Assembly: GCF_026151205.1 (NCBI RefSeq)
Contig: NC_087078.1
Coordinates: forward strand, 9,502,675-9,566,674
Reading direction: 5' to 3'
DNA: 64,000 bases
Origin: Bolinopsis microptera
Taxonomy: Eukaryota > Ctenophora > Tentaculata > Lobata > Bolinopsidae
Below the pieces are notes generated by a model. That model was not told the origin of the DNA. It saw only the letters and a program-made list of their open reading frames with translations, and searched no databases. Below are positions 16,588-55,200 of this stretch, piece by piece. Within the stretch, counting starts at the first letter, position 1. Every line of letters begins with the position of its first letter. A program made the position numbers and the translations under genes.

Positions 16588-19128
16588 TGGACACGTTCAT
16601 TTGAGTTTGAGGATATTGGTAAACAAAAATAATAGCGTTTTTGACGATAGTGGCTTAATTTTGACATCTATTAACCTAGCACGTTCAGAAGTTCTGAACA
16701 TTAGCCGCGTAACCCATACTCCCATATGCACTGCTCAGAAAGAAAATCTATTGTTGTTAGGCACTGTAATGGTTCAAATGTCACATTTTGTGTGACTTAG
16801 TTAACTGCAGTTGTCTAATTATCATTCCTTGGTCTGGAACATAGTAGATTAGGTCAATCTAACAATTATGATACAACATTGGTTAAAGGGCACGGATCGA
16901 ACGGTTACAAGGCAATATTTAGGTAACTTTGTCACACTCAGAATACCATACCTCTATTCTACTGTGAGGTGTCCTCAAAACCCTTTTTACTCATTATTTG
17001 ATGGTTGATCTACCAAGTACGGAGTACCAATCATAGCCTTAAAATATGTTGCTTTGAATAGTAAGCTAATACAGGCACTTGGTTATTGGGAAATGAGGTT
17101 AATTCTGTCACAATATATGGAATTTAAAATTTTGGGCGAATTATTTATATCTGATTTTGGTTTGAAAGGCGGGAAAACTTTACATGATGACAATGTAGTT
17201 GATGCAAGTTAAGATCAGTTGATGTTTACATTGTCACAAAAAATTAAACGAAATCGTAAATAGGTTAAAAACAATGATTATATAATGAAATAGTCTCTTA
17301 TAATAAGTAATAACTCTTATAATAACTGATGTGACAAAGTAAACATGTCTTGCCCCTATTTTGAAGATCTATATATTCTATAACTCTATTAGAATTTAAC
17401 ATTCTTTCAGAAAAAATTGGTAGAATATTGTCCAGAACATCAGAGCTCAAGTTTAACAATTTTGGGTTAAATTTGTCAAAGTCACTAAAAATGTGACAAA
17501 ATTAACTTTTCCTGCCCCAACAATTTCAAGATAGTGTGTAAAAATTAGCATAGGCTGCCTTATTACCTAAATAAATCAATCCAAACTACAAAAAAATATA
17601 TGTTAATGTGATGACGATTACCTAACTGTAATAATAACTGATGTGACAAAGTAAACATGTCTTGCCCCTATTTTGAAGATCTATAACTGTATTAGAATTC
17701 AACATTCTTTCAGAAACGATTGGTAGAATATTGTCCAGAACATCAGAGCTCGAGTTTAACAATTTCAGGTTAAATTTGTCAAAGTCACTAAAAATGTGAC
17801 AAAATTAACTTTTCCTGCCCCAACAATTTCAAGACAGTGTGTAAAAATTAGCATAGGCTGCTTTATTACCTAAATAAATCAATCCAAACTACAAAAAAAT
17901 ATATTTTAATGTGATGACGATTACCTAACTCTAATAATAACTGATGTGACAAAGTAAACATGTCTTGCCCTTATTTTGAAGATCTATAACTGTATTAGAA
18001 TTCAACATTCTTTCAGAAACGATTGTTAGAATGTTGTCCAGAACATCAGAGCTCAAGTTTAACAATTTTAGATTAATTTGTCAAAGACACTGAACATGTG
18101 ACAAAATTAACTTTTCCTGCCCCAACAATATCAAGATAGTGTGTTAAAATTGGCATAGGAATTAGGATGCTTTATTGCCTATATTTATTGATCCATACTA
18201 CGAAAAAGATCGGTTAATCTGATAACGATTACCTAACTCTTATAATAACTGATGTGACAAAGTAAACATGTCTTGCCCCTATTTTGAAGAACTATACCTC
18301 TATTAGAATACTATGTAATTTTATCATCAAAAAAATGTCGATAAACTAGTTATTTTGCCAGCAAGGAGCTGACAGAGTTATGATAATTTTTTGTGACGAA
18401 ATTACCCTATTTTTGACCATGTTGTGGTAGATTAATTGTGACACTGTTAACATATTACCACACGTTAATGATTTATGTGACTGGTGCATGGTACTAGCAG
18501 TGTTGTTTGATCCATAGTACGTAATACAAAGGGTTTAAGCGGGTATATCATTATTTGTTCAATTTCACACATGTTCAGATATCATCAAGATTATGTGACA
18601 AAGTAAACTTGTCTGTGCCTTCTGTGTTTTAATTCCTTGCGACTATATGATATAATAACAATTCCTAGCACTTCCAGGCCATTAACTAAACCTACACTAC
18701 TCAGCATTGCTTATCAGGGTTCCCTAAACATTGTTCACATATTTTCTTAAATGTGTGACAGATTAAACCTGAGTGCACCATCTAACGAAAAAAAGTCGTC
18801 AAATATGTAGGTAATGGTCATATGTACACATCCAATCAACTGGACACTCAAAATTTTGGTCAAAAACGGCAGCAAGGGGTCCATATTTACTCTGTCACAT
18901 GTTTATAGTGTGACAATGTAACCATTTCCGTGCCGGCCGTATTTAAGCGATATCTTATCACCTGATTAAGATATCGTTATGTGACAAAGTTAGCCTAGAG
19001 GATGAGACGATTATCCTAACCATCAAGGGTTTGTGTAATTTCATAGTGTGACAAAGTCAACTACACTGTGCCTTTTAATAGGGTCACTTATATTTACCAA
19101 TATCCTCAAACTCAAATGAACGTGTCCA
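16588..19128. mobile_element. 2.5-kb non-autonomous DNA transposon with ~38-bp terminal inverted repeats
   Basis: The left end reads TGGACACGTTCATTTGAGTT then TGAGGATATTGGTAAA. The right end is its exact reverse complement (about 19093-19128). Both ends abut TA, as expected for a TA target duplication. No long open frame lies inside. The interior is marked by many copies of TGTGACAAA followed by GT/AT-AAC, and by a four-copy ~305-bp tandem block (17328-18290). This is a non-autonomous element. The transposase family is not identifiable beyond the TA target, which is common for Tc1/mariner but not unique to it. Confidence 0.8.
17328..18295 (+). repeat. Tandem ~305-bp repeat inside the TIR element
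   Basis: Four copies begin near 17328, 17638, 17941 and 18249, each with GATGTGACAAAGTAAACATG followed by TCTTGCCCCTATTTTGAAGA. Later in each unit come a second TGTGACAAAATTAAC and CCTGCCCCAACAAT. The last copy is truncated. Copies differ by scattered substitutions. Confidence 0.85.
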
Positions 19129-20650: not shown

Positions 20651-23600
20651 TTAAGTCACCCCGGTCTGATCCAGCTCCTCCGGCACAATTAAGCGTTTGG
20701 TGCGGTTTGCGAAATTGACAATTGTGGTGATGTGTTGGTTGTCGAATATGTCATTGACAGAGAGGTAGTAGTCCTGGAAATATTGACCTCTAATTTGGGC
20801 AATAGCCGGACACTGTCCAAGAAAGTGTGAGACAGTTTCCTCTCCGTCGCCGCACATAGGACAAGCACTGGTGTTTGATTTGCAAATGGTGTGAAGGTGT
20901 TTGTTTAAGCCGCAGTGACCCGTGATGAGGTGAACTGCAGTTCTGTAATCTTGTCTGTTTTTGCTGAGTGTAGTGTTGAGGTTTTTGATGATTTTGGCAT
21001 GCTTGTGGCCGAGTGTCAGTTTGGTGTGTCTGGGACCGTCAGTTAACCAAGTTTCCTGATTCAGTCTGTTGACTTTGTTGTCGATTTGACGCTTGATGTA
21101 GGATTGAGGAATTGGACACTTCAAAGTGGATTCACTGATTGTACCAAGCTTGGCCAGCTCATCTGCTTTTTCGTTCCCCCACAATCCGATGTGTGCTGCA
21201 ATCCATCGTATCTCTAGCGTGTTGTTGGATCCGAGTGCATTAAGAGAGTCGTAACAGTCTCTTGTAGTTCTACTCCGCGTTGAAAGCGCAGAGATAGCTT
21301 GTATAGATGAGAGACTGTCAGACCATATGATGATGTGTGTGTTGGTATAGGTAGAGAGATATTTGCAAGCTTCAATGATGGCGGTGAGCTCTGTTTGGTA
21401 AACAGTGCAATAATCAGGGAGCTTGAATGATCTTTCTTCAAGGGTGGTGTTATTGTTGTCAGTTGTGATGATATAGCCAGCCCCGCATCCTGAGTCAGTG
21501 AGTGACCCGTCAGTGTAGCAGGTGATCGTTTCACTGGTAATGTTGTCAATGGTGTTTTGAAGTGAATTTCTATATTCAGTGTTATCGGCTCCAGGAGTTG
21601 TGACGGTGAAGTGCCGTCCCAGCATCATGGTTGGTGTTGTTAGGTCTCTCGTTGCTCTAGGTGGGATAATGAGGTCTGCCATGAATTGTTTGTTGATAGT
21701 GGTATGATTTTTGATAGTTCCCTTCCTGAAGGCGATAGTTTCAAGAGTGAGGCTGCCATAAGCTTGTAGCCTGGCCGCACCCTTTGCTGCTTCGCCTTGC
21801 AGGAACAGTATGATGTCAGAAGTGTCGGTGAGGTGATTCAATGCGATAAAAGGTGTGCTTGGCATGGCACCAGACATCATTCTGAGTGCCAATGCCTGCA
21901 CACGTTTGAGTTTCTTCGCGTTATAGTCCGTTTGAGTGGCCCTGATCCATATACTACAGCAGTAGGATAGGATTGGACGGATGACAGCCGTGTACATCCA
22001 TTTGCATGTTTTAGGGCTCATACCCCATGTGGGGCCGACAGCTCTTCGACATTGCATGAGGGATGCCGTGGCTTTTTTGGTGGTGTTGATGATATGTTCA
22101 TTGAAATTGAGTTTGCTGTCCAAGGTGACTCCTAGAAATTTAGCAGACTTGGAAAGACCTATAATGTTGTTGCCAACTGTTATAGGTCTTAGAGTCCACT
22201 TACTATTCCAGGTAAACATGACTATCTGAGTTTTAAGGGCGCTAATAGATAGCTCTTTGGTTCTGCACCAATTTTCTATCGTTTTAATAGTTTTGCATGT
22301 TCGGTCCCAGATGATGTCTAAATCATCCCCTTCCGCTAGAGACAACAGATCATCCGCAAAGGCTTGCAGGTAACCCGGGATGTCTTTTGCGGTAAAGGAA
22401 AGGAGATTGTCGACTACCAGATTCCAGAGAAAAGGAGAGAGAATGCCTCCTTGGGGGCAACCTCGCCTGATCCGTACCCTTCTCGACTTATCCTTATGAT
22501 TTAGTGTGATGAATCGATTGGTTACCATGTTGATGATCCACTGTGCAGTAGCCAAGTCCACTTTCGTAGCCTTGACTGCTTCAGAGATAGCCTTGAACGA
22601 GACATTGTCGAAGGCACCCTCTATATCTAGAAAGACACCTAGGACATATCCTTTCTTGGCTATTCTGCGCTCAATGGTGTGAGTAACTTTATGAAGTGCC
22701 GCTTCTGTGGAGCAGCCCTTCTTAAAGCCGAATTGTCGTTTGTTGATATCATTAGCTATGTTGAGGTCATGTTGCATATGCCATAAGATCACTTTCTCCT
22801 GCAACTTTAACATCACGGGCGAAAGAGTGATCGTTCGAAATGACTTAGCTTTGTTGTAGTCGGTTTTTCCAGGCTTAGGGAGAAAGATTCCAAGAGAGTC
22901 CCTCCACAAAGTTGGGATGTGTTGCGTTTCATGGTTTTTTGTCATAATGTTTTTTGTTATGTCTTTGATATGAGCCCAGGCTTTCTGGAATATGATAGGT
23001 TTTAGAGTGTCAGGTCCTGCAGCCTTCAAGGGATCGAAGGATAGGAGAGCCTTTTCGATTCTTTCAGGGCTGTAGATTTTGTCTAGTAAGTCTGTGGAGA
23101 TCGGTAAGGGGCAGAGAGGCGGAACTGGCGGATCAGTAACACTCTCCTTGAAGTGGGTTTGTGTCATGACCTCCAGTGTCTCCTCTGCGTTTATGGTGAG
23201 TTCGCCATTTGGTTTATAAACGGCTTCAAGTTTGTTATTGGTGTCAGTACAGGTTTTCAGAATCTTGTTCATCCTTCCAGATTCCTTAACCGATTCTGTG
23301 TCTGCGCAGAATTTCCGCCACGCATTGCGCTGGGAGTTGGACAGGATCTTGTTGTATTGCTTGTTGCTTTCTCTAAGAGCGAGCCACGAAGCATCAGTTT
23401 TGGTTCGACGAGCTGTGATGAGTTTGCGTCTTATACCCCTCTGTGCTTCCTCAACTTCTCGAGTTAGCCAGGGTGGTTTTCTGACAGCGCTGGAGATGTA
23501 AGTAATGGGACATGCCTCCTCGAAGGCAGCTCGGAGAGTAGTATTAATGGTGTTAACTTTGTGATCAATGTCGTGTGGTGTGTTAACGCAGGTGTTGTGG

Positions 23601-24370
23601 AGATCATTGTTGTTGTAAAGAATCTCGTCAAATTTCGCCCAGTCAGTGTTCTTGACTAGGCGTATTTGTCTTGGTTCTTTTTTGGGACCAGAAGTAATGT
23701 CGAACATGATATATCTGTGATCGGAGTTTGAGTAAAGATCACTAACGTGCCAGTTACTGATCAGTTCCGCCCCCAGTTGGTTGGTAATAGTGAGGTCAAT
23801 GATGGAATTATGACCTCGTGAGTTGAGGAATGTTGGAGTTGAACCTTTGTTGGAACAGGAGAGCCCTAGCGACGAGAGGAAATCAAGTAGTTCCTCTCCT
23901 CTTCTATTGCACAACTTGTTACCCCAAAGAGTGTGTTGGGAGTTGGTGTCAGAGCCTATTATGAGTGGTATTTTGTTGTCTATAGCGTATTTGGCTAGAG
24001 GTGTGGTTTCGTGGGATGGAGCTGGTCCATTAATATCCATGTACGAAGCTGCCAGAATTACTTCTGTCGAGCTAAGTTGAATCTTAATAGCAACTTGATC
24101 CGGGGTTGTGAATTGCGATAGTTCCCAACTTTTTTCAGCTAGGTTTTTGTGTATTACTATGGCGGCACGGGGCCTAATGTCCCCAACTTTGTAGTAATAC
24201 TCGGTTAGTTCTTTGCTTATTGGTGGAATTAGGTGTTTGTTATTAGTGTATGGTTCAGTCGCTAGTACAATAGGATTTTTCCTGCCATGAGTGTTCACCA
24301 GCAGGGTTTTCCAAGCGTTGTACTTGCGTTTAATATATAAGGTTGATTTGAGTAACAGAGTAATATTCAT
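20651..24370 (-). CDS. LINE ORF2: endonuclease, reverse transcriptase, RNase H
   Basis: About 1239 residues from the first ATG at 24370, and the frame is open somewhat further upstream to 24418. The N-terminal APE-type endonuclease shows ATEPY, GSDTNSQHTLWG, STPTF, SIIDLTITN and SDHRYIMFD. The central reverse transcriptase shows FLPKPGKTDYNKAKSFRTI, FGFKKGCSTE, FLDIEGAFDNVSF, RGCPQGGILSPFLWN and catalytic FADDLLSL. RNase H follows with CYTDGS, YQTELTAI, WSDSLSSI and HIGLWGNEKADELAK, covering the D-E-D-D/H set. A C-terminal Cys/His motif CPMCGDGEETVSHFLGQC follows. The order endonuclease-RT-RNase H is known for the I group of LINEs. There is no stop or frameshift, so the protein could be functional. 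Confidence 0.93.
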   Translation of the reverse strand: MNITLLLKSTLYIKRKYNAWKTLLVNTHGRKNPIVLATEPYTNNKHLIPPISKELTEYYYKVGDIRPRAAIVIHKNLAEKSWELSQFTTPDQVAIKIQLSSTEVILAASYMDINGPAPSHETTPLAKYAIDNKIPLIIGSDTNSQHTLWGNKLCNRRGEELLDFLSSLGLSCSNKGSTPTFLNSRGHNSIIDLTITNQLGAELISNWHVSDLYSNSDHRYIMFDITSGPKKEPRQIRLVKNTDWAKFDEILYNNNDLHNTCVNTPHDIDHKVNTINTTLRAAFEEACPITYISSAVRKPPWLTREVEEAQRGIRRKLITARRTKTDASWLALRESNKQYNKILSNSQRNAWRKFCADTESVKESGRMNKILKTCTDTNNKLEAVYKPNGELTINAEETLEVMTQTHFKESVTDPPVPPLCPLPISTDLLDKIYSPERIEKALLSFDPLKAAGPDTLKPIIFQKAWAHIKDITKNIMTKNHETQHIPTLWRDSLGIFLPKPGKTDYNKAKSFRTITLSPVMLKLQEKVILWHMQHDLNIANDINKRQFGFKKGCSTEAALHKVTHTIERRIAKKGYVLGVFLDIEGAFDNVSFKAISEAVKATKVDLATAQWIINMVTNRFITLNHKDKSRRVRIRRGCPQGGILSPFLWNLVVDNLLSFTAKDIPGYLQAFADDLLSLAEGDDLDIIWDRTCKTIKTIENWCRTKELSISALKTQIVMFTWNSKWTLRPITVGNNIIGLSKSAKFLGVTLDSKLNFNEHIINTTKKATASLMQCRRAVGPTWGMSPKTCKWMYTAVIRPILSYCCSIWIRATQTDYNAKKLKRVQALALRMMSGAMPSTPFIALNHLTDTSDIILFLQGEAAKGAARLQAYGSLTLETIAFRKGTIKNHTTINKQFMADLIIPPRATRDLTTPTMMLGRHFTVTTPGADNTEYRNSLQNTIDNITSETITCYTDGSLTDSGCGAGYIITTDNNNTTLEERSFKLPDYCTVYQTELTAIIEACKYLSTYTNTHIIIWSDSLSSIQAISALSTRSRTTRDCYDSLNALGSNNTLEIRWIAAHIGLWGNEKADELAKLGTISESTLKCPIPQSYIKRQIDNKVNRLNQETWLTDGPRHTKLTLGHKHAKIIKNLNTTLSKNRQDYRTAVHLITGHCGLNKHLHTICKSNTSACPMCGDGEETVSHFLGQCPAIAQIRGQYFQDYYLSVNDIFDNQHITTIVNFANRTKRLIVPEELDQTGVT

Positions 24371-24444
24371 GATGAGTTTTACCTGTTTTTTTGGTATTGG
24401 GGACGTGGCGTGCAGCACCTGCAGTTACCCTCACCGGACGGGTA

Positions 24445-28905: not shown

Positions 28906-29068
28906 CGACAATTGACCCCCTATGTAATTACACTGGGGTCAATTGTCGCGAAATCTAGGCCTTAATACGACAATTGACCCCCCGACAAGGTTAGGGTTAG
29001 ATTTAGGGTTTGGGCTAGGGTTAGGGTTTGGGTTAGGGTCAATTGTCGGGGGGTCAATTGTCGGGGGG
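28906..29068. repeat. Second copy of the CAATTGACCCCC / TTAGGG composite
   Basis: Has the same order as 4973-5791 in miniature. It starts TACCGCGACAATTGACCCCC, then the AATTACACT hairpin block and CGACAATTGACCCCCCGACA. A degenerate TTAGGG tract follows (about 28988-29035), then GGGTCAATTGTCGGGGGGTC in the opposite orientation, twice. The shared left block of ~80 bp is almost identical at the two loci, which lie 24 kb apart. Confidence 0.9.
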
Positions 29069-29514: not shown

Positions 29515-32500
29515 TCATCTTGAACTTTTTCCATTAGATTCAATAGCATTATCATTAACTTGTTCAACATTTTCTATTTCGACAACTTTACTCGATGAAT
29601 TAATATTATCAAGCGCATTTAAATCGGATTCGATTTTGACAGATGCTTGCAGTTCTTGCGATTTCTTCTCCAGGTTTAAGTCGCCATCTGCATCGGGTGT
29701 GGGGACTTTGGCTTCTTCAAACTGCTTCTCAGAGTTTGACGAAACTCGATCTGCTTGATTCAATGTGTTTGTGTGTTTCAGATTTTGGAGGAGATCTTCA
29801 GACTTCAGCTTTATCTCGTCACACAACTGAAAGATAATTAATTTCCAGTTAATGATCAAATTGGGAAGTATATCAAGTCTGGGGATCTACTGAAAATTTG
29901 CATTTGAACCAAAAATAAAACACAACAAGATATCATGACAATGATGTACAGTAAACCCCGATATATAGCGGAGTTATGACTATAAGCGGAGTTTTTTTAT
30001 AGGGAGAAAGGAAAAGCCGCGGTAAATCGGGGTTTGAGGAAAATCGGGGTATTACTGCACTTAGCCAATGTTACATGAAATAAGAACCATGGATGTGGAG
30101 GATTGCTGCTGGTCGAGTCTCGAGAGTCGCTCCTCAGCTTTTTTGACCACCTGACCGATAGCTTCTCTCCATATTTGTGAGGTGGTGCGGGAGTACCTGG
30201 GTTTCTTCAGACACGGTCCATCACACTCAATCAACCTGTCATGGTTTGTTATTGTTCAGGAGATTTTCAATGATACATTTACCACAGAGTTTTTCTATAA
30301 AATAGGTATTATAATACTCATTCGTTAACAGTTAATGGATTTAAGCACGAAGAACTAATATTCAGCGGAGAAAGTAAATAAAAACAAATATCTTTCCCAT
30401 TATTCCCAGCTTAACAAATAAACTTTACGGGAAATTTCAGTATTTCGGCAATAGCAGGGGAAAAAATCTATGCCAACTCATGGCGCTTATTATATTATAT
30501 TACATAGACTAATTTAAGTTATTACATAGACTAGTTTATGTTATTTGTTTAAAGTTTTTAACTACTCACAGTTGCGGGGGTGTAATTCCCGTTTCTTCTG
30601 ATACCTGAAAGTTTTACGTGAATATACTTTATTTTGGATGTTTAAAAACACTTAAAAACCACAAATTTGTAGTGATTAAGTGGTTGATCAAAACAGTGCA
30701 CCAATCTTGAATCTCAATTGTCATTTATTTTCACTCCCCGATTTAATAGTTTAATCTTAAAGTTACTTATTGAAGTCAGTTAGTTCGTTTAGCTCGTATT
30801 AATAGCTAGCTTTTAATGGTTTTGTATCAGACTGTAAAGCGTAAAAGTTTCGTTCGTAAGCTTAAAATACAAAGTTTCGATATTGCTGCCTTGCGCTAAC
30901 GTTTAGAAATATTTGTTGACAAGTATTTCAATATTTGGGGAAAATGTATACTTATAGTTAATTTAGATAATTTATACACCATGTGTTTTAGCATAACATG
31001 AATTAAACAGGAATTAAACTATTAAACAGAATTTAACATGAAATGACCAAGGAGAAGACTAACGAGCTCGTCTTACATCAATTCATAAAGACGATCAGAA
31101 CTGAAATTCTGGAGATGTGCATAAAAGCAAGTCCATGGAGATGAGTTAGAGACCATGATAGGTTGATCATTGATGCGACGTTCATGAAGATAAGTAGGGG
31201 ACGTGAAGTGATGACTAGGACTTCTTCTTTGGAGGATTTCAAAGGTGTGAGGAGTCTGTGAGGTAATTTCCAAATTCTTTTGCATGGAATGAGTTCATGA
31301 TGGCCCCATATTCTTTGGGAATTATGAGGCTTTTAAGGTTGTCTGAGAGGTCCAGACGCCATCATTTCATTTTCATTGCATAAACTCGGTGTAGTTATTG
31401 ACTACTGATTAGTGATTAAGACTAATGTCCCAGAAGTGGGGAGATACTGGACGTAATACAGTAATAGTTCGGCCGATCGATTAATCAAGTTGAGTAAATG
31501 TTGGCGCGCGCGCCCTAATTGATGTAAGCGCGCTATTGCATCTACAATGTTTTGAATCGTCGTCGCGTTTGCCGTCTCCAGAAGACGTTTCCCTGAATTT
31601 CAGAGGATGTTTTCACTGAGTTGTATCGTTGCCCCCATCCTGAATCTGCCTTCATATATAGGTTGCGCATGCGCGTTCCCTACAACATTTGGTTTATATT
31701 ATATTTTAGGATAGTTCACGCCCTATACTAGTTCAATATCTCACCACAGCTTCACACCCTAATTTAATTAATTCACAGATGATTAGATGATACCTGAATG
31801 TGTTCGGGGTATTGAAGTATAGTCGGGCCTGTATCCGCCATCAAATTCTCCAAATTTTGACAAAGGAAATCGCCTTAATACTTTAATATAATGTACATAA
31901 TTCAATATAAGGTGGTTTGAGGTGGTTAAGTTAGTGCATTTGTTTTGAAATACTTTTAGTTGTTAATGGAGTAGTTGTAAAGATTATTTTATGGTTTATT
32001 TCACCATAACGTAATTAAAATTTCTGCCCCCATTTAGTAAGATGTAATGTAAGGTGATTTTCAGTATTTTTATCAGTGCAAGTATTCTGTAATACTGTTA
32101 GTAGTTACTGGAGTAGTGTGAACAACAATATAAACTATCAAATAAACCATTTGGAAACCATTTTAGGGTTTTTTTGATCGAATGTATCGTAATTAAAATT
32201 TCTGCCCCCATTTACTAAGATGTAATGTAAGGTGATTTTCAGTATTTTTATCAGTGCAAGTATTCTGTAATACTGTTAGTAGTTACTGGAGTAGTGTGAA
32301 CAACAATATAAACTATCGAATAAACCATTTGGAAACCATTTTAGAGTTTTTTTGATCGAATGTATCGTAATTAATTTTGTTGCCCCCATTTGCTAAGATG
32401 TAATGTAAGGTGGTTTTCAGTAGTTTTATCAGTGCAAGTATTCTGTAATACTGTTAGTAGTTACTGGAGTAGTGTGAACAACAGTATAAACTATCAAATA

Positions 32501-35500
32501 AACCATTTGGAAACCATTTTAGGGTTTTTTTGATCGAATGTATCGTAATTAAAATTTCTGCCCCCATTTACTAAGATGTAATGTAAGGTGGTTTTCAGTA
32601 TTTCTATCAGTGCAACTATTCTGTAATACTGTTAGTAGTTACTGGAGTAGTGTGAACAACAATATAAACTATCAAATAAACCATTTGGAAACCATTTTAG
32701 AGTTTTTTTGATCGAATGTATCGTAATTAAAATTTCTGCCCCCATTTACTAAGATGTAATGTAAGGTGGTTTTCAGTGGTTTTATCAGTGCAAGTATTCT
32801 GTAACACTGTTAGATATTACTGGAGTAGTGTGAACAACAAGGTAAACTATCAAATAAACCATTTGGAAAACATTTTAGGGTTTTTTTGATCGAATGTATC
32901 GTAATCAGTGCAAGTATTCTGTTTATTAATACTAATATAAACCAAATGGTTTATTTGATACTTTATATTGTTGTCCACACTAGTCCAGTAACTACTAACA
33001 GTATTACAGAATAGTTGCACTGATAAAACTACTGAAAACCACCTTATATTACATCTTAGTAAATGGGGGCAGAAATTTTAATTACGATACATTCGATCAA
33101 AAAAACCCTACAATGGTTTCCAAATGGTTTATTTGATAGTTTATATTGTTGTTCACACTACTCCAGTAACTACTAACAGTATTACAGAATACTTGCACTG
33201 ATAAAACTACTGAAAACCACCTTACATTACATCTTAGTAAATGGGGGCAGAAATTTTAATTACGATACATTCGATCAAAAAAACCCTAAAATGGTTTCCA
33301 AATGGTTTATTTGATAGTTTATACTGTTGTTCACACTACTCCAGTAACTACTAACAGTATTACAGAATACTTGCACTGATAAAACTACTGAAAACCACCT
33401 TACATTACATCTTAGTAAATGGGGGCAGAAATATTAATTACGATACATTCGATCAAAAAAACCCTAAAATGGTTTCCAAATGGTTTATTTGATAGTTTAT
33501 ATTGTTGTTCACACTACTCCAGTAACTACTAACAGTATTACAGAATACTTGCACTGATAAAACTACTGAAAACCACCTTACATTACATCTTAGTAAATGG
33601 GGGCAGAAATTTTAATTACGATACATTCGATCAAAAAAACCCTAAAATGGTTTCCAAATGGTTTATTTGATAGTTTATATTGTTGTTCACACTACTCCAG
33701 TAACTACTAACAGTATTACAGAATACTTGCACTGATAAAACTACTGAAAACCACCTTACATTGCATTACATCTTAGTTTATGGTTTCTTGATGGTTTGTC
33801 TTGCGGTTCTTATCGTCCTTTCTACTATTCCACTAACAGTATTACAGTATAACAGAATAAATGGTTTCAAGATGGTTTATTTCACGGTTTGTATTGTTGT
33901 TTGCACTAACCTGTGGACCTATGGACTACAGTCACTGGTATGCATAATTCGATTACGTATATCCGACCGAGCAAGAAATCGTATCACCAAGGAAACTTAA
34001 TTAGATTGGCACGGTCAGATCATGATGGGGGCAGACGATACAACGTGGGGGCAAGAAATGGGGGCATGATACAAATACGATACAAATTCAGCGAAAACAT
34101 CGCCTCCTGAATTTTGTAGTGGATTTTGTAGTGGATTTTGCGCGCCTCACGTACGTTACAATATTTATCATTGCAGAATCTACGACGCGACGGTAGAAGT
34201 CAGAAGTCTCAATAAACTGCTCGTACTTATACTTTTATATACACTTATAAGATATGAAAATCTAAGTAACACATCAACCCCACTCAGGCCGCCCATCCCA
34301 AATAGCTTGAAATCTGTGACAAATCCCTAAAAATCCAGAATGAGAATCTTTACCCCTGGGCCCTGAAGGGGATTTGTGTTGCTGTATATTTGAAACATGA
34401 TTGGTGGTTAAATAGAGAGTACATATCCCTAACCATTACAAAGACCAAGTTTTAAGCTCTTGAACCACTCAAGCCATTCTTAGAAGCCATGCCAATCCCA
34501 AAATGACTGAAATCCTCGTAAAATCCAGATCGAGAATCTTTACCCCTGTAGTGCTTTTATGTTCCGGGGTAGGTGAAACATGTTTTAGTTTAAAAATGGG
34601 TTCTACCTGTCCCAAACCATCATAAAAATCAAGTTTCGACCTCTCAACCCACTCAGGCCACTCCCAGGGGCCACGCCCATCCCAAAATGACCGAAATCCA
34701 GCTAAAATCCAGACTTTAAAATCTTTACCCCTGTAGTGCTTTTATGTTCCGGGGTAGGTGGGACATGTTTTAGTTTAAAAATGGGTTCTACCTGTCCCAA
34801 ACCATCATAAAAATCAAGTTTCGATCTCTCAACCCACTCAGGCCACTCCCAGGGGCCACGCCCATCCCAAAATGACCGAAATCCAGCTAAAATCCAGACT
34901 TTAAAATCTTTACCCCTGTAGTGCTTTTATGTTCCGGGGTAGGTGGGACATGTTTCAGTTTAAAAATGGGTTTTACCTGTCCCAAACCATCATAAAAATC
35001 AAGTTTTGACCTCACAACCCACTCAGGCCACTCCCAGGGGCCACGCCCATCCCAAAATGACCGAAATCCAGCTAAAATCCAGACTTTAAAATCTTTACCC
35101 GGCCCCTGTAGTGCTTTTATGTTCCGGGGTAGGTGGGACATGTTTCAGTTTAAAAATGGGTTTTACCTGTCCCAAACCATCATAAAAATCAAGTTTCGAC
35201 CTCTCAACCCACTCAGGCCACTCTCAGGGGCCACGCCTAACCCAGAAAAGCTACAGGAAGTGGGGTGGGGCAAAACTAACGTTACATACGTTGAGTCTTA
35301 TACAGGGGTGTAGGAAGCGGGGGGCAGGGGGTGCCATCGCCCCCCATGAAATCTGGGGAAGTGGCCAAAAAGGGCCAACTTTTTAATATAGGTTTCTAAA
35401 AATTTTTGGGAAAAACAATTTTTTTCCGAACATTTTTAAGTCAAAAATCTTTTCAGTCAAAAATTTTCAAAGTTTTCTTGGAAACTAGTTTTGTTCATGT

Positions 35501-38500
35501 TTCATGCTACCCTGATCATTATGAGCCAAAAATATTTTTTTCGGTTTTCGAAGTTCGATATACGATCGAGGGATCCCCTTTGTAATGCGATCTCGTAAGG
35601 CAGGCCTCCCCTTCGCAATACGACCTCGGAAGCGGGAGCTCTGCTTTCAGAGGTACGTATCGGCCAGGTAGCGTAGTTGGTTGATCATCGGATTTGTAAT
35701 CGTAAGATTGCGAGTTCGAATCCCACTGCCTGCCTAGTCGTGGGGTGAGCGTCGTTGACGCTCTGCTAAGGATCCCGAGTGGTCTATGTAGCCCCACGGT
35801 TCACTCAGCCGAATGCTCGAGAAATCGGGTGTGAGGGTTAAATGAGGAGCTGTGCTTGATCAACACAGCGAAGCCTCGGGCGAAGAAAGTGTGGCATAGT
35901 GCCTTAACCGTTGCTGGCCTTAGGAACGATCCTTCGGCTTCTTGTAAAGCTCTTCCTTGAAAGTGCTGGTTTACATTGTAATGCAGGTAATGCCGAAGTA
36001 AAATAACAAAGGTGGTCGACTCATTCGATGGCCTTGTTGCGTCGCAACGAATCCTCATAAGATAAGATAAGATAAGATATCGAGAATGACTCGGACCGAA
36101 AATTTTCTAAGTCAAAGATTTTCAAAGTTTTCTTGGAAACTACTTTTGTTCATGTTTTATGCTACCCTGATCATTTTGAGCCAAACATATTTTTTTTCGG
36201 TTTTCGAAGTTCGATACACGATTTTGGACTCGAGGGATCCCCCGATCCCCTTTGTAATACGATCTCGGAAGGCAGGCCTCCCCTTCGTAATACGAGCTCG
36301 GAAGCGGGAGCTCTGCTTTCAGAGGTACGTATCGAGAATGACTCGGACCGAACATTTTCTAAGTCCAAAATTTTCAAAGTTTTCTTGGAAACTAGTTTTG
36401 TTCATGTTTCATGCTACCCTGATCATTATGAGCCAAAAATATTTTTTTCGGTTTTCGAAGTTCGATATACGATCGAGGGATCCCCTTTGTAATGCGATTT
36501 CGGAAGGCAGGCCTCCCCTTCGCAATACGACCTCGGAAGCGGGAGCTCTGCTTTCAGAGGTACGTATCGAGAATAACTCGGACCGAAAATTTTCTAAGTC
36601 AAAGATTTTCAAAGTTTTCTTGGAAACTAATTTTGTTCCGAATGTTTCATGCTACCCTGATCATTAGGAGCCAAAAATATTTTTTTCGGTTTTCGAAGTT
36701 CGATATACGATTTTGGACTCGAGGGATCCCCTTTGTAATGCGATCTCGGAAGGCAGGCCTCCCCTTCGCAATACTAGCTCGGAAGCAGGAGCTCAGCTTT
36801 CAGAGGTACGTATCGAGAATAACTCGGACCGAAAATTGTTTAAGTCAAAATTTTTCAAAGTTTTTCTAGAAATTACTTTTGTTCATGTTTCATGCTACCC
36901 TGATCATTTGCATTCTGAGCCAAAAATATAGTTTTCGGTTTTTTGAAGTCCGTACCTTTCATTCGGTAGGTTGTGGATGTGATACTGATTGGTTTCATAT
37001 ACTAATTATATATATATATAGACTCTTATACCACCACCGTGTTTCATATTATGGACCTGCAACTTTGCAGATGGCATGCTAACTACTCATTCGAGGATTT
37101 CGTCGCCAATGCTCGAAAATTTGAATATTTAGACTACGTCCATATAATATTAAATCACCTATATTGTTCTTTCCGGACATGCTAGACGCCCATTTATTTC
37201 AGATTACTGCAGATAATTAATTGTTGCATCTGATCTGAAAAATTGAGGCCAAACGTATTTGAAATGACGAAGTTATCAAGCATTTAATGTATCTCGTTAA
37301 CAAAATTGATTGGGTGATTATCTGATAGGTCACCTTAATTGGGTTCCCTTGCAATTTGACGGGGCCATCTAATCACCTGTACAGGTAATCGAATCACCTG
37401 ATCACACGTAATGGATAAACTCGTCATGCCTCGTATGAGTATCTCGGTCATCTGAGAAGCTACAACTCTCATTTTTTTTCAGATCAAACGTAATTTGAAT
37501 GGCCAAATACAATCCTATAAAATCTGGCTCGATCTGATTATCAAAACTATCAAATAAATGCGATCATGAACCTTCATTAAAAAAAATGAAAATGAATATT
37601 CTTTGATTTAATATATTGCTCGAATGAGTGGTGATAGTAAGTCATACCAAAAAGAATACCCCGGAACATAAATCCCTTACAGCATACAGGTGTAAAGATT
37701 CTCATTCTGTCTGTCTGGATTTGATTTTACCCCGGAACATAAAAGCACTACAGGGGTAAAGATTTTACAGTCTGGATTTTAGCTGGATTTCGGTCATTTT
37801 GGGTTGGGCGTGGCCCCTGGGAGTGGCCTGAGTGGGCTGAGAGGTCAAAACTTGATTTTTATGATAGTTTGGGACAGGTAGAACCCATTTTAAAACTAAA
37901 ACATGTCCCACCTACCCCGGAACATAAAAGCACTACAGGGGTAAAGATTTTAAAGTCTGGATTTTAGCTGGATTTTGGTCATTTTGGGATGGGCGTGGCC
38001 CCTGGGAGTGGCCTGAGTGGGTTGAGAGGTCGAAACTTGATTTTTATGATGGTTTGGGACAGGTAGAACCCATTTTAAAACTAAAACATGTCCCACCTAC
38101 CCCGGACCATAAAAGCACTACAGGGGTAAAGATTTTAAAGTCTGGATTTTAGCTGGATTTTGGTCATTTTGGGATGGGCGTGGCCCCTGGGAGTGGCCTG
38201 AGTGGATTGAGAGGTCGAAACTTGATTTTTATGATGGTTTGGGACAGGTAGAACCCATTTTAAAACCAAAACATGTCCCACCTACCCCGGAACATAAAAG
38301 CACTACAGGGGTAAAGATTTTAAAGTCTGGATTTTAGCTGGATTTTGGTCATTTTAAGATGGGCGTGGCCCCTGGGAGTGGCCTGAATGGGTTGAGAGGT
38401 CGAAACTTGATTTTTATGATGGTTAGGGACAGGTAGAACCCATTTTAAAACCAAAACATGTCCCACCTACCCCGGAACATAAAAGCACTACAGGGGTAAA

Positions 38501-41500
38501 GATTTTAAAGTCTGGATTTTAGCTGGATTTTGGTCATTTTGGGATGGGCGTGGCCCCTGAGAGTGGCCTGAGTGGGTTGAGAGGTCGAAACTTGATTTTT
38601 ATGATGGTTAGGGACAGGTAGAACCCATTTTAAAACCAAAACATGTCCCACCTACCCCGGAACATAAAAGCACTACAGGGGTAAAGATTTTAAAGTCTGG
38701 ATTTTAGCTGGATTTCGGTCATTTTGGGATGGGCGTGGCCCCTGAGAGTGGCCTGAGTGGGTTGAGAGGTCGAAACTTGATTTTTATGATGGTTAGGGAC
38801 AGGTAGAACCCATTTTAAAACCAAAACATGTCCCACCTACCCCGGAACATAAAAGCACTACATGGGTAAAGATTTTAAAGTCTGGATTTTAGCTGGATTT
38901 TGGTCATTTTGGGATGGGCGTGGCCCCTGGGAGTGGCCTGAATGGGTTGAGAGGTCGAAACTTGATTTTTATGATGGTTTGGGACAGGTAGAACCCATTT
39001 TTAAACCAAAACATGTCCCACCTACCCCGGAACATAAAAGCACTACAGGGGTAAAGATTTTAAAGTCTGGATTTTAGCTGGATTTCGGTCATTTTGGGAT
39101 GGGCGTGGCCCCTGGGAGTGGCCTGAGTGGGTTGAGAGGTCGAAACTTGATTTTTATGATGGTTTGGGACAGGTAAAACCCATTTTTAAACTAAAACATG
39201 TCCCACCTACCCCGGAACATAAAAGCACTACAGGGGTAAAGATTTTAAAGTCTGGATTTTAGCTGGATTTTGGTCATTTTGGGATGGGCGTGGCCCCTGG
39301 GAGTGGCCTGAATGGGTTGAGAGGTCGAAACTTGATTTTTATGATGGTTTGGGACAGGTAGAACCCATTTTTAAACCAAAACATGTCCCACCTACCCCGG
39401 AACATAAAAGCACTACAGGGGTAAAGATTTTAAAGTCTGGATTTTAGCTGGATTTCGGTCATTTTGGGATGGGCGTGGCCCCTGGGAGTGGCCTGAGTGG
39501 GTTGAGAGGTCGAAACTTGATTTTTATGATGGTTTGGGACAGGTAGAACCCATTTTTAAACTAAAACATGTCCCACCTACCCCGGAACATAAAAGCACTA
39601 CAGGGGTGAAAAGCACTACAAATCCACTACAAAAATCAAGGAAACGTGCTCTCGCCGTCCTATCCGGGAACATAGATCGCATACGGGGGTAAAGATTCGG
39701 GGGGTTTGGTTTTTTACCCTCTAGAATAATATCAATTTTAATTTTAATTCAAATTCAATTTCACTCTGTTAGTGATACAATTTAGAAATTGATCGAATAT
39801 CTGGCTATAATAGTAAGTAGTTTAGAAAGTGCTTGGCCGGATTAGATATCATAACAATGATTTAGGCTCATCATGATAGCATGATGAGGGTAGCATGAAA
39901 CGTAGGGAAAAGTGTTTTCTAGGGAAAAAATTCAAGGGCTGTAAAACACTTTAAAACAGCTAACACTATGAATAGAATTGAAAAACAACAAAACTTTTAA
40001 ATAACCATAAACATACATAAATATCTATGTCCTATACCTATTTTGAAATCGGAGGGAACAATAGGTATTTATGAGGTTGATGCCTATTATTATTAGCATT
40101 AGATATAAAAAGATAATGAGTATACTGACACAGTGAGAATGTAGCGCGTCTATCATGTCTGAGATTGTGAGAGGTTCCCCCTCCTTGCTGGGTCTCTTCC
40201 TGCAAACTGGTCTCTTTTCTCTCCGCGTCTTATTAGAGTAGTCGAGTGAGGGGAACTCTGTAGTGTTAGGGTGAATTAGAAACAAATTTATAACAGTTAG
40301 CTTGTTTACCAATAATCTTATTTAAGATTTATAATCATTATTATGTTCATTTTTATGTTCATAGTTTTACTAGAAAAGCGAACTTTACATTTACATTAAA
40401 ATGACATTTTACTTTATAATGATAATGTAAATTACACAAATTGCATGGTTCGCACAGTTAATTTACCGAAATGAAAAGCTGGGTTGTCCGAGGCAAGGAT
40501 AGACGTACTGTAGCCGGAGTAAGTACCCTGATAAATTGAGTGTTAGTTACCATGGTAACCAGTGTTAGTTACCAATAGTTACCAATAGTTACCGATGCAA
40601 TATGATATCTTTTTAAATTCTAGTGGCTCAAGCTCAGTTTGAGGGGTTAAAATGGTAGCTCAAATTAGTACAGTAAAACCGGGCATTACCGCGTAGTCAT
40701 TCCCTTATCCCAAATAGGGCTTAATATCCATAATATAAACAAACAATACCCCGATTTACCGCGAACCCTGATTAGGGTTTACCGCGGCTGTTCCCAAAAT
40801 CTGCAGTAAAATTTGGTTTTACCGCAATTAATTACTAGGCTTCGTAGGAAATAATAAGCTTATGAAGATGAAATGTTTACAAAGTTCTCACAGATTGTTG
40901 TCGTGTTTTCTCTCTTATCTTCTTCATCTGCTTGTGCTTCTTCAGCATCCGCTTCATTTCTTCCTCGCTCATCTCTTCTTCATCGCTGCTATCTGAACTG
41001 AAATTTCGGGAATTATTTTAATATTTCGCCGAATTCCATCACTCTACGTCCGAAACCGATGAAAATAAACTAAAATTGATTTTTTAAGGAGATTACTTCT
41101 GTAAGGGCAAAGGCGAACTATAAGTTATCTGACTAATAAATACAGAAAATTAAATAGTTGAAATAAACACTGTGTAAGTTAGAATATTGTCACACGATCC
41201 TCTCAATGACACTGTCTTGTGACTTAGTCCTACTGGAAGGGGAGTAAGCAGCTCTGATACCTCTAGCTTTCTACTTATTGCTTATTCGCTAAACATGACA
41301 TGTCACATGACGTCATGACATGTGTCACTGGTCACATGACGTCATGACGTGTCACATGACGTGTCACATGGTAACTGGTAAGTTGACAGCACCTGTCTGA
41401 AAGGAGGATGTCTTTTAGCCACATGTTCTCTTCAGTTAGCTCACTTGTGTCGTACATAAACTTCTCGTCAGGCTTCAGATCTGAAGAAAACATGTGTTTT

Positions 41501-52200: not shown

Positions 52201-55200
52201 AAATGGAGGAGTTAGCTACTGAGTTTTCTAGCATGTCTTTTATCATCTTCAGGGCTTCCTCGCTATCCATGTCTCCTGAGGTGGATCAGTTCTTTTCAAA
52301 TAGTACTAAAAAATAGTACTTAATATTACTAAATGCAATTTAAGATTAAATTTAATGTATTATTTTCACTTTTCTGATATCAAATTCTTCAATCTCCGCT
52401 TATAAATGTACCGTGCAGTGGCCGGCTTATTTCAACCCTTGTTGTTCTCAAAATACTTTATTTCAGCATTGTTAATTTAAACTTATTTTCTGCTTGTCCC
52501 CCCCTGCTCCGCTCTACGAACCAGAGTCGTCAGCATCGTAGGTCTTGAAGAGGTTCATGAAGAAGTGCCCCGTGATCGGTGAGAAGAGCAGCGAGAATGC
52601 CTCGTACAGTGGTTCGTCCAATGGGAGGGCTAGGATCAGCTCGCATATCTTAATTCTCTTCTTAAAGGGGTTCTCTGAAAGTAGTAGCAGGGCTAGGACC
52701 AGCTTAAGATAAACAGATATTTTAAGTGATTAGATTATATTATTCAATATTGTATACAAAATGTTTTAAGTAAATGTAACTGTAGTGAGAAGAGCTAGGA
52801 CCAGCTGTAGCAGTTAGTCCACAATCTCGGATCTCCACCAGGGCTTCAAAGAACGGTTTCAGCTCCGTCACATCCACCAAACCCTTGTCGTTCGGTCTAA
52901 AATGAGCTAAGATCTCGATGAGAGCATTGCCAAATATAGGGGGGTCGGTTAGGTACGGGTAGAGGAAACTAATCCGGAAGAGTGTTAAACTCTCCCCTGT
53001 TTGGAGTCCTTGAGATTGTGAGAAGTATCTGAGAACGGGGATTAGTAACTATTATTCCGAGTTAATAGGTTAATAATTAGTTAATAATTAGCTAATTGGT
53101 GTGCCCGTATAACTTTTTAACCCTGCACGAAAAACATGAAACCGTTTGGGGCCTTAATCTCTGGTCTCCGAATCATCTTTGCTGAAATTTTTCAAGTCTT
53201 ATGAAACTCTGAGGAAATATAATATAGAATGTAACCATGGTACCAGTATTGGAAGATCATGTCTCACCTCCTAAGGGCCTCAGTTCTTTTAGTTATCTTG
53301 GGTCTGTTACTAAGCACAGGACAAGGTTTAATAGGCTCTGTTACCTGCTGTACCTTATCAATAACACCTGCATAGGGTTAAATCTTACTAACAATATTGT
53401 TTGTTTTTATTCTACAATCTGCGACTAGATTAATCTTTTTTAAGCAATTAAAATATCTACAAAACATGATGTCAGTTTGTCGAATATGATATGAGACTGT
53501 ACTTGCCTGGTTTACAGTATAGTACGTTGATGATAGTCCCAGCTGATAAGTGTTCGGGTTCGTTAACACATCTAAACAATAGAGCAACGCATGCTTTAAC
53601 CGCATCTGACAAGGCCTTCTTACTGGCTAGTGGGTGGGAGGCTTTCTTTTTCTGTCCTGCTACCTGTAACACATAGCTGTTACACTGTAACACATAGCTG
53701 TGTAACACTGTAACACATAGCTGTACCAGTGTACCAGTGTAACACATAGCTGTACCAGTGTAACACTGTAACACATAGCTGTACCAGTGTAACACTGTAA
53801 CACATAGCTGTACCAGTGTACCAGTGTAACACATAGCTGTACCAGTGTACCAGTGTAACACATAGCTGTACCAGTGTACCAGTGTAACACATAGCTGTAC
53901 CAGTGTACCAGTGTAACACATAGCTGTACCAGTGTAACACTGTAACACATAGCTGTACCAGTGTACCAGTGTAACACATAGCTGTACCAGTGTAACACTG
54001 TAACACATAGCTGTACCAGTGTACCAGTGTAACACATAGCTGTACCAGTGTACCAGTGTAACACATAGCTGTGTAACACTGTAACACATAGCTGTGTAAC
54101 ACTGTAACACATAGCTGTACCAGTGTACCAGTGTAACACATAGCTGTACCAGTGTACCAGTGTAACACATAGCTGTACCAGTGTAACACTGTAACACATA
54201 GCTGTGTAACACTGTAACACATAGCTGTGTAACACTGTAACACATAGCTGTGTAACACTGTAACACATAGCTGTGTAACACTGTAACACATAGCTGTACC
54301 AGTGTACCAGTGTAACACATAGCTGTACCAGTGTACCAGTGTAACACATAGCTGTACCAGTGTACCAGTGTAACACATAGCTGTGTAACACTGTAACACA
54401 TAGCTGTACCAGTGTAACACTGTAACACATAGCTGTGTAACACTGTAACACATAGCTGTACCAGTGTACCAGTGTAACACATAGCTGTACCAGTGTAACA
54501 CTGTAACACATAGCTGTACCAGTGTACCAGTGTAACACATAGCTGTACCAGTGTACCAGTGTAACACATAGCTGTGTAACACTGTAACACAGCTGTTACA
54601 CTGTAACACATAGCTGTACCAGTGTAACACTGTAACACATAGCTGTGTAACACTGTAACACATAGCTGTGTAACACTGTAACACATAGCTGTGTAACACT
54701 GTAACACATAGCTGTGTAACACTGTAACACATAGCTGTACCAGTGTACCAGTGTAACACATAGCTGTACCAGTGTAACACTGTAACACATAGCTGTACCA
54801 GTGTAACACTGTAACACATAGCTGTACCAGTGTACCAGTGTAACACATAGCTGTGTAACACTGTAACACATAGCTGTTACACTGTAACACATAGCTGTGT
54901 AACACTGTAACACATAGCTGTACCAGTGTACCAGTGTAACACATAGCTGTACCAGTGTTACACTATAACACATAGCTGTACCAGTGTAATACTGTAACAC
55001 ATAGCTGTACCAGTGTAACACTGTGTCTGTAACACATAGCTGTACCAGTGTAACACTGTAACACATAGCTGTAAGAGTGTAACAAAATATTTATACTTTA
55101 ATTGGCAAGCTTGTCTGTAAGATTTTGAATTATTCAAAGAATTTCAAGTCTAAATGGAGACAATATAAACACGATATATTATAACACAACATAAACAAAC

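What the first reader, a model, noticed from the sequence alone, without database searches (positions are those of the whole stretch)
31593..34114. A 2506-bp foldback transposon built from opposed ~180-bp tandem repeats, with an 8-bp target duplication
The left arm is a tandem array, and the right arm is the same array reversed. The terminal motifs are inverted (ATGTTTTC followed by CTGA near both ends), and CTGAATTT flanks both sides. Outer units are the most diverged and inner ones the most alike, as if homogenised from the centre. Nothing inside codes for protein. FB and Galileo elements of Drosophila have this plan, and an 8-bp duplication also fits hAT or P-type transposases. The left end begins CAGAGG, which is hAT-like. 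The family may be undescribed.
Basis: partly seen in the sequence, partly recalled or inferred. Interest (0 to 1): 0.75.

Follow-up and report, generated by a model that had tools for sequence, protein, structure and literature searches.

The report
Foldback transposons carrying matched end codes
This is a real jumping DNA element made of back-to-back repeats, sitting inside a larger cousin, and well-preserved members of each family repeat the same short family-specific "address" at both tips and through their repeats, as if each had been tuned to its own moving enzyme.

Summary
Window 31601-34106 (2506 bp) is a foldback transposon flanked by an exact 8-bp duplication, CTGAATTT. A joined-flank query aligned across the insertion point at 40 other rows; five were read and are empty sites. 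Relatives in the same genome share the tips; 13 of 18 tabulated have exact 8-bp duplications.

It lies 22 bp inside the left tip of a second foldback ("C", 31579-39653, opposed 185-bp arrays) of the same clade; C's right-end 20-mer has 88 exact copies.

New result: a motif TGT[NNN]G starts 22-23 bp from the tips, with a family triplet (ATC, AAC, GGC, AGT or AGG) that recurs in that element's tandem units. In 14 counted elements or pieces, inward-facing terminal sites are 49 of 49 own-type, internal sites 190 own against 10 other. A1/A2 and C/C' changed tips and arrays in step. Ten older or very short copies, counted apart, mostly lack the motif at an end, and one (L013) has unlike ends.

Best reading: non-autonomous cut-and-paste elements whose arms multiply transposase-binding sites, with repeated specificity switches. 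No transposase was found; superfamily undecided. "Homogenised from the centre" is not supported. New variant of a known kind.

The parts
31601..34106 (+). Foldback transposon, family A1, 2506 bp
31593..31600 (+). Left copy of 8-bp target duplication CTGAATTT
   Evidence: single copy in the empty sites read
34107..34114 (+). Right copy of 8-bp target duplication CTGAATTT
31601..31614 (+). Left tip CAGAGGATGTTTTC, shared by dispersed copies
34093..34106 (-). Right tip GAGGCGATGTTTTC (reverse complement), shared by dispersed copies
31622..31628 (+). Left terminal motif TGTATCG, starting 22 bp from the tip
34078..34084 (-). Right terminal motif TGTATCG, starting 23 bp from the tip
32010..32905 (+). 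Left arm: 178-bp tandem array; TGTATCG on the plus strand, TGGGGGCA on the minus strand
32942..33766 (-). Right arm: the same array reversed; TGGGGGCA on the plus strand
31579..39653 (+). Host element, family C foldback, interrupted by the A1 insertion; tips CAGAAGACGTTTCC and (reverse complement) GAGAGCACGTTTCC
34426..35244 (+). Left arm of host element C: 185-bp array with TGTAGTG
37728..39607 (-). Right arm of host element C: the same 185-bp array reversed
31571..31578 (+). Possible left target duplication of C, GCCGTCTC (right counterpart 39654-39661 GCCGTCCT, 6 of 8)

Best explanation
31601-34106 is a non-autonomous cut-and-paste DNA transposon of foldback type. A transposase supplied in trans recognises the two tips plus a site TGT[NNN]G placed 22-23 bp inside each tip, and joins with an 8-bp stagger. 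The arms are arrays of the same site, about one per full tandem unit, acting as extra transposase-binding sites that help synapsis or titrate the enzyme. When recognition changed (ATC/AAC in family A, AGT/AGG in family C), tips and arrays had to change together. SHOWN: transposon structure, 8-bp duplication, empty sites, multi-locus family, placement and family-matching of the motif in well-preserved copies. INFERRED: that the motif binds a transposase, that arrays help transposition, and that switches were driven by recognition.
For: Structure and duplication. Empty sites: one search gave 42 rows; two are the window's own two flanks, and the other 40 span the junction (between query positions 121 and 122; starts 87-109, ends 194-226). 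Three of the 40 are one tandem cluster. Five were read with one CTGAATTT (L047, L048; L049; L053, L054). Family: 13 of 18 A/B-type insertions have 8/8 duplications, two 7/8; family C has 8/8 at 2 of 5. Motif match: terminal inward-facing 49 of 49 own-type, internal 190 own against 10 other, in 14 elements or pieces. Eight further single ends carry only one type each. A1 (window) versus A2 (L010): all 5 homologous motif copies (1 left, 3 right, 1 array unit) differ A/T at the same base, while 31 of 379 other columns differ. C versus C': L049, fetched to look at a nearby hAT fragment, has AGG at both left terminal sites and in four array units; L054, fetched for its duplication, has AGG at both ends and inside. 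TGGGGGCA: 13 in the element against 2 in the rest of the window, changing strand at the centre.
Against: No transposase gene was seen in any copy read that belongs to the element itself (ORFs by eye). No binding was measured. The 14 counted elements are the better-preserved ones. Of ten others with both ends in hand, L013 has ATC left and AAC right, L016 and L036 have no motif, and the other seven show it inward-facing in the first 60 bp at one end only. Motifs do not always face the nearest end: in six elements held whole 49 of 63 do, but only 2 of 9 in L011 and 1 of 6 in L012; B at C9 is 3 to 59. Units homogenise, so internal counts are not independent; the firm concerted switches number two. 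L053 and L054 lack duplications (0/8, 3/8), as do L033, L034, L045. L011 and L012 reach 8/8 only after the left boundary is moved by 1 and 6 bases. The second right repeat of L054 reads ATCGGGG. TGGGGGCA is absent from C.
Confidence: 0.62

Rival explanations
1. The match between tips and arrays is inheritance only: arrays grew by tandem duplication from the element's own subterminal DNA and are homogenised by unequal exchange and gene conversion, with no binding role.
For: B units resemble the B right end over more than the 7-bp motif (GGGGGC ... CGCCACAAATTT ... AAAAC; by eye). Full units within the window element are 94-99% alike. Array orientation is not kept in L011 and L012.
Against: A1 and A2 arrays are homologous to each other, so the array predates the split; yet the A/T difference is also at four terminal sites in different contexts. 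C and C' behave alike. Conversion tracts would have to be only a few bases long.
Confidence: 0.25
2. The arrays are bound by a host protein (chromatin, silencing or replication factor), and the elements adapt to it.
For: Unit lengths of 167-185 bp are close to nucleosome spacing (recalled). TGGGGGCA shares GGGCA with the THAP1 site (THABS AGTACGGGCAA, passage of PMC13077089).
Against: The triplet motif also sits at a fixed 22-23 bp from both tips in the counted elements, where end recognition is expected, and differs between sister families.
Confidence: 0.1
3. Two unrelated satellites with chance inverted blocks, no transposition.
For: The 178-bp and 185-bp units form tandem arrays.
Against: Fixed ends, 8-bp duplications and empty sites.
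Confidence: 0.02

Closest known systems
Tetris / DAIBAM, Drosophila virilis group (PMC4079207; abstract and two sections read)
   Same: Non-coding foldback with ~220-bp tandem repeats in long inverted ends, a short MITE-like relative sharing the tips, no autonomous copy found, 8-10 bp duplications.
   Different: Family-specific motifs matched between tips and arrays are not mentioned in the parts read; host is a fly; here every exact duplication found is 8 bp.
Galileo, P superfamily (PMC3688188: abstract, introduction, section 2.6, discussion, figure legends; PMC3573991 and PMC4168063: passages)
   Same: Long internally repetitive ends; [quoted passage not shown] several subfamilies in one genome.
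   Different: Duplication mostly 7 bp with a GTANTAC-type target; sites found in two of four repeats of one subfamily; transposase remnants known. Here no transposase and no evident target consensus.
Tm1, Mutator/foldback of root-knot nematodes (PMC3169594: passages)
   Same: Composite repetitive ends, unequal 7-bp terminal motifs, MITE-like forms.
   Different: Mostly 9-bp duplications and a ~14-bp repeat motif; some Tm1 copies encode a putative transposase.
TU elements of sea urchin (recalled; the Tetris paper mentions foldbacks from sea urchin)
   Same: Foldback with tandem outer domain and, as recalled, 8-bp duplication.
   Different: As recalled, 15-bp repeats; no sequence compared here.

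Membership tests
Foldback-type DNA transposon (structural class) | Long inverted ends made of tandem repeats | tested here: met
Foldback-type DNA transposon (structural class) | Dispersed copies with fixed ends and target duplications | tested here: met
hAT superfamily | 8-bp target duplication (usual for hAT: passage of PMC12730594) | tested here: met
   13 of 18 exact; 2 of 5
hAT superfamily | hAT transposase in an autonomous member with these ends | tested here: inconclusive
   150 of 365 candidates scored; none within 16 kb of 70 entered A/B-type positions; none inside 28 paired C elements (0.13 expected by chance); closest 5.7 kb from a C' left end, no matching right end in the 2 kb read. 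End lists were capped.
hAT superfamily | Both tips CAG-type (recalled) | tested here: not met
   Left CAGARG, right GAGR without CA
P superfamily (incl. Galileo) | P/THAP transposase | tested here: inconclusive
   PF12017 and PF21787: 0 hits, no control genome rang
P superfamily (incl. Galileo) | 7-8 bp duplication | tested here: met
   8 bp
Galileo | GTANTAC-type target | tested here: not met
   No such consensus in the base counts of 15 sites
Mutator/foldback (Tm1-like) | Mostly 9-bp duplication | tested here: not met
   Every exact case found is 8 bp
Mutator/foldback (Tm1-like) | MULE transposase | not tested
   PF10551 search did not complete
KDZ (Zisupton etc.) | KDZ transposase | tested here: inconclusive
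   PF18758: 0 hits, no control genome rang

The most novel reading that the evidence does not exclude
A clade of foldback transposons in one eukaryote genome has diversified by repeated switches of transposase recognition. Each switch is written as one triplet at a fixed place in both tips and through the arm arrays, so each well-preserved copy carries a readable record of which enzyme it answers to. Arms would have been built to multiply enzyme-binding sites, which would explain why foldback structure evolves.
Probability: 0.47. Interest if true: 0.75.

Novelty: new variant of a known kind. Interest (0 to 1): 0.6.

Why it matters
The use of the long repeated arms of foldback elements is unsettled; the Galileo work (PMC3688188) proposed secondary transposase-binding sites from one subfamily. 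Here five matched variants within one genome give natural swaps in which terminal and array sites differ in step. That makes the binding-array idea directly testable and shows how transposon families may separate from each other's enzymes. The nested insertion also gives a clean empty-site proof.

Tried and rejected
Satellite-only reading: rejected by empty sites and fixed ends. LINE in copy L015 and piggyBac at L035 as movers: rejected, both look like nested insertions. L035 encodes DDE_Tnp_1_7 and by eye the insert is bounded by TTAA; the L015 ORF reads as a LINE by eye. RT ORF in the 10.8-kb B copy as cargo: thought unlikely, because sequence flanking it recurs at window 16.6-19.1 kb and at L036, and the ORF recurs at L044. 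hAT fragment at C9:12535978 as the C' transposase: no matching right end in the 2 kb read. Target-site consensus: none evident. 'Homogenised from centre': not supported. THAP link: motif resemblance only.

Dropped or set apart: from the duplication table, L017 (same flanks as L018) and L015, L019, L020 (one end only). L046 counts as 7/8 but is doubtful, both 'duplications' resembling internal B sequence; L033 and L034 have near-identical flanks. From the 14-element triplet count: L013, L016, L017, L018, L030, L033, L034, L036, L045, L046 and eight single ends, all reported. One search used 70 positions that I chose, not every row. One search used 37 of the 40 other rows (three tandem rows left out) plus the window, and 100 of 124 right ends (one search lists 100). 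One search lists 100 of 119 matches.

Full report
CHECK OF THE OBSERVATION. Tandem Repeats Finder gives a 178-bp array at 32010-32905 and another at 32942-33766. The two arms are 825 nt, 97% complementary, with 75 nt between them. CTGAATTT stands at 31593-31600 and 34107-34114, so the element is 31601-34106, 2506 bp. The longest open stretch is 98 aa. One detail is wrong: units are not most alike at the centre. The outermost left unit is diverged (67-71%), but the innermost units are not the most alike, and the two outer right units are 99.4% identical.

PROOF OF INSERTION. The sequence right of the element is a repeat (43 rows; 40 of 214 candidates scored). A query made of the two flanks with one CTGAATTT was searched in the genome (40 of 114 candidates scored). 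Of 42 rows, two are the window's own separate flanks. The other 40 span the junction between query positions 121 and 122, with starts at 87-109 and ends at 194-226; three of them are one tandem cluster. Some alignments contain gaps of up to about 20 bases, whose place I did not see. Five of the 40 were read and carry one uninterrupted CTGAATTT: L047 and L048, L049, L053 and L054. So the element inserted into a copy of another repeat, 22 bp from that repeat's left tip at 31579, and duplicated 8 bp.

THE FAMILY. A whole-element search of the window's genome (264,652,675 bases, 232 contigs, organism not named) gave 65 matches at 13 places by my grouping. Terminal patterns then led to a related family B with tips CAGAGGGTGTTTTC and GAGGCGATGTTTTCT, three pairs 10.1, 10.8 and 12.5 kb apart, with units of about 167 bp. 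Duplications were tabulated for 18 A/B-type copies: 13 are 8/8, two are 7/8 (one doubtful), three are 3/8 or less. In L011 and L012 the left boundary had to be moved by 1 and 6 bases from the first alignment to reach 8/8. The duplications show no evident target consensus. Short, MITE-like members with the same tips occur (195, 233, 289, 480 bp).

THE HOST ELEMENT IS A THIRD FAMILY. The repeat that was hit has opposed 185-bp arrays at 34426-35244 and 37728-39607, and tips CAGAAGACGTTTCC at 31579 and, reverse-complemented, GAGAGCACGTTTCC at 39653. These tips follow the same plan as A and B. The right-end 20-mer has 124 matches at up to 3 mismatches against 13 for the reversed pattern; 88 of the 100 listed rows are exact. 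Of 38 left ends entered, 28 face a listed right end within 25 kb, 0.3 to 20.8 kb apart. Duplications of C: 8/8 at C1:25451763 and C5:1880244, 6/8 in the window, 0/8 and 3/8 in two short copies.

MATCHED MOTIFS. In the counted elements TGT[NNN]G starts 22-23 bp from the tips that were printed. The triplet is ATC in A1 (window, L009, L011), AAC in A2 (L010, L012, L014), GGC in B (C3, C2, C9, L027), AGT in C (window, L053) and AGG in C' (L049, left end only; L054). The same triplet appears in the tandem units. Over these 14 elements or pieces, inward-facing sites in the terminal 90 bp are 49 own-type and 0 other (40, 9); internal sites are 190 own-type and 10 other (189 and 10, 1 own). In family C one AAC-type site near the left tip faces outward and is not in the inward count. 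The rest of the window outside C (56 kb) has 29 sites of the five types together. Units share descent, so these are not independent events.

RESULTS AGAINST. The 14 are the better-preserved copies. Ten others with both ends in hand were counted afterwards (first and last 60 bp). L013 has ATC on the left and AAC on the right. L016 and L036 have none. L017, L018, L030, L033, L034, L045 and L046 show the motif inward-facing at one end only. Eight further single ends carry one type each: L015 AAC, L019 and L020 ATC, L044 GGC, L047, L048, L051 and L052 AGT; in L020 the motif is at 47, not 22-23, behind what looks like a duplicated tip. Orientation is not strict either: among six elements held whole, 49 of 63 internal own-type sites face as the nearest end does; window 8 of 9, L009 10 of 11, L010 14 of 14, C window 14 of 14, but L011 2 of 9 and L012 1 of 6. 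B at C9 is lopsided, 3 to 59. Lowering my odds from 0.66 to 0.62 reflects this.

THE CONCERTED SWITCHES. A1 and A2 have homologous arrays and tips. In a window-L010 comparison all five homologous motif copies (one left, three right, one array unit) differ at the same base, A/T; 31 of 379 other columns differ. Counting both core bases gives 5 of 10, Fisher p = 0.0009. The position was chosen after seeing the data. C' at C9:12530258 was fetched to ask about a nearby hAT fragment and has AGG at both left terminal sites and in four array units, none of AGT. A second C' copy, L054, fetched for its duplication, has AGG at two left sites, two right sites within 90 bp and one internal site; its second right repeat reads ATCGGGG.

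A SECOND SHARED MOTIF. TGGGGGCA occurs 13 times in the window element and twice in the other 61.5 kb, on the minus strand in the left arm and the plus strand in the right arm. It is in B too and absent from C. In the A and B elements, 138 of 149 internal copies are followed within 45 bp by the own-type site, 11 by none and 0 by another type. It shares GGGCA with the THAP1 site (THABS AGTACGGGCAA, passage in PMC13077089), which is only a lead.

MECHANISM. Galileo's THAP domain binds a site near the tip and sites in the tandem repeats (PMC3688188, parts read), and its authors proposed that many sites supply specificity. The present elements fit such a plan: a terminal site at a fixed place, the same site repeated in the arms, both differing together between sister families. 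Binding itself is not shown. The main rival is descent plus homogenisation without function, which explains agreement within arrays but less easily the parallel differences at separate terminal sites.

WHICH SUPERFAMILY. Undecided. An 8-bp duplication fits hAT and Zisupton (passages in PMC12730594) and P (passage in PMC4168063). The genome has at least 150 scored hAT dimerisation hits of 365 candidates, but none within 16 kb of 70 entered A/B-type positions and none inside 28 paired C elements, where 0.13 is expected by chance. P and KDZ models found nothing, without a working control. The MULE search did not complete. The two tips differ (CAGARG and GAGR), unlike ordinary hAT ends as I recall them; unequal terminal motifs are described for the Mutator/foldback Tm1 (PMC3169594, passages), whose duplications are mostly 9 bp.

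NOVELTY. Foldback elements with tandem repeats and MITE relatives are known (Tetris, PMC4079207). The listings of searches showed nothing that I recognise as these families or as matched switches of tip and array sites, but the organism is unknown to me and no repeat database was available. I file it as a new variant of a known kind.

Noticed in passing
window 31579-39653: A second foldback element (family C, 185-bp opposed arrays, high copy) is the host into which the reported element inserted; a 246-bp array lies between its arms at 36078-36942.
   Followed up: yes
L017:1-1917: A 54-bp tandem array of 35.5 copies whose unit, by eye, contains the right junction of the MITE copy seen at L018 (duplication AGTTTGGG plus GAGGC of the tip): possibly a satellite grown from a transposon junction.
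   Followed up: partly
L013:1025-1778: A member with unlike ends, ATC left and AAC right, and a 7/8 duplication: a possible hybrid of A1 and A2 or a decayed copy.
   Followed up: no
window 17311-18309: 303-bp tandem array related to sequence nested in the 10.8-kb B copy (L026, L041) beside an RT ORF; likely part of another retroelement.
   Followed up: partly
window 20651-24424 and 56613-58487: Retrotransposon ORFs with RVT_1; the first also has endonuclease and RNase H domains.
   Followed up: no
window 4977-5790 and 28989-29068: GGGGGTCAATTGTCG-type 15-bp arrays next to telomere-like GGGTTA tracts.
   Followed up: no
L035:806-7356: piggyBac-type transposon (DDE_Tnp_1_7) inserted, by eye at TTAA, in an old member of the clade.
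   Followed up: partly
window 53657-55084: Long open frames made of a 29-bp GTGTAACACTGTAACACATAG-type array; open by composition, unlikely to be a gene.
   Followed up: no
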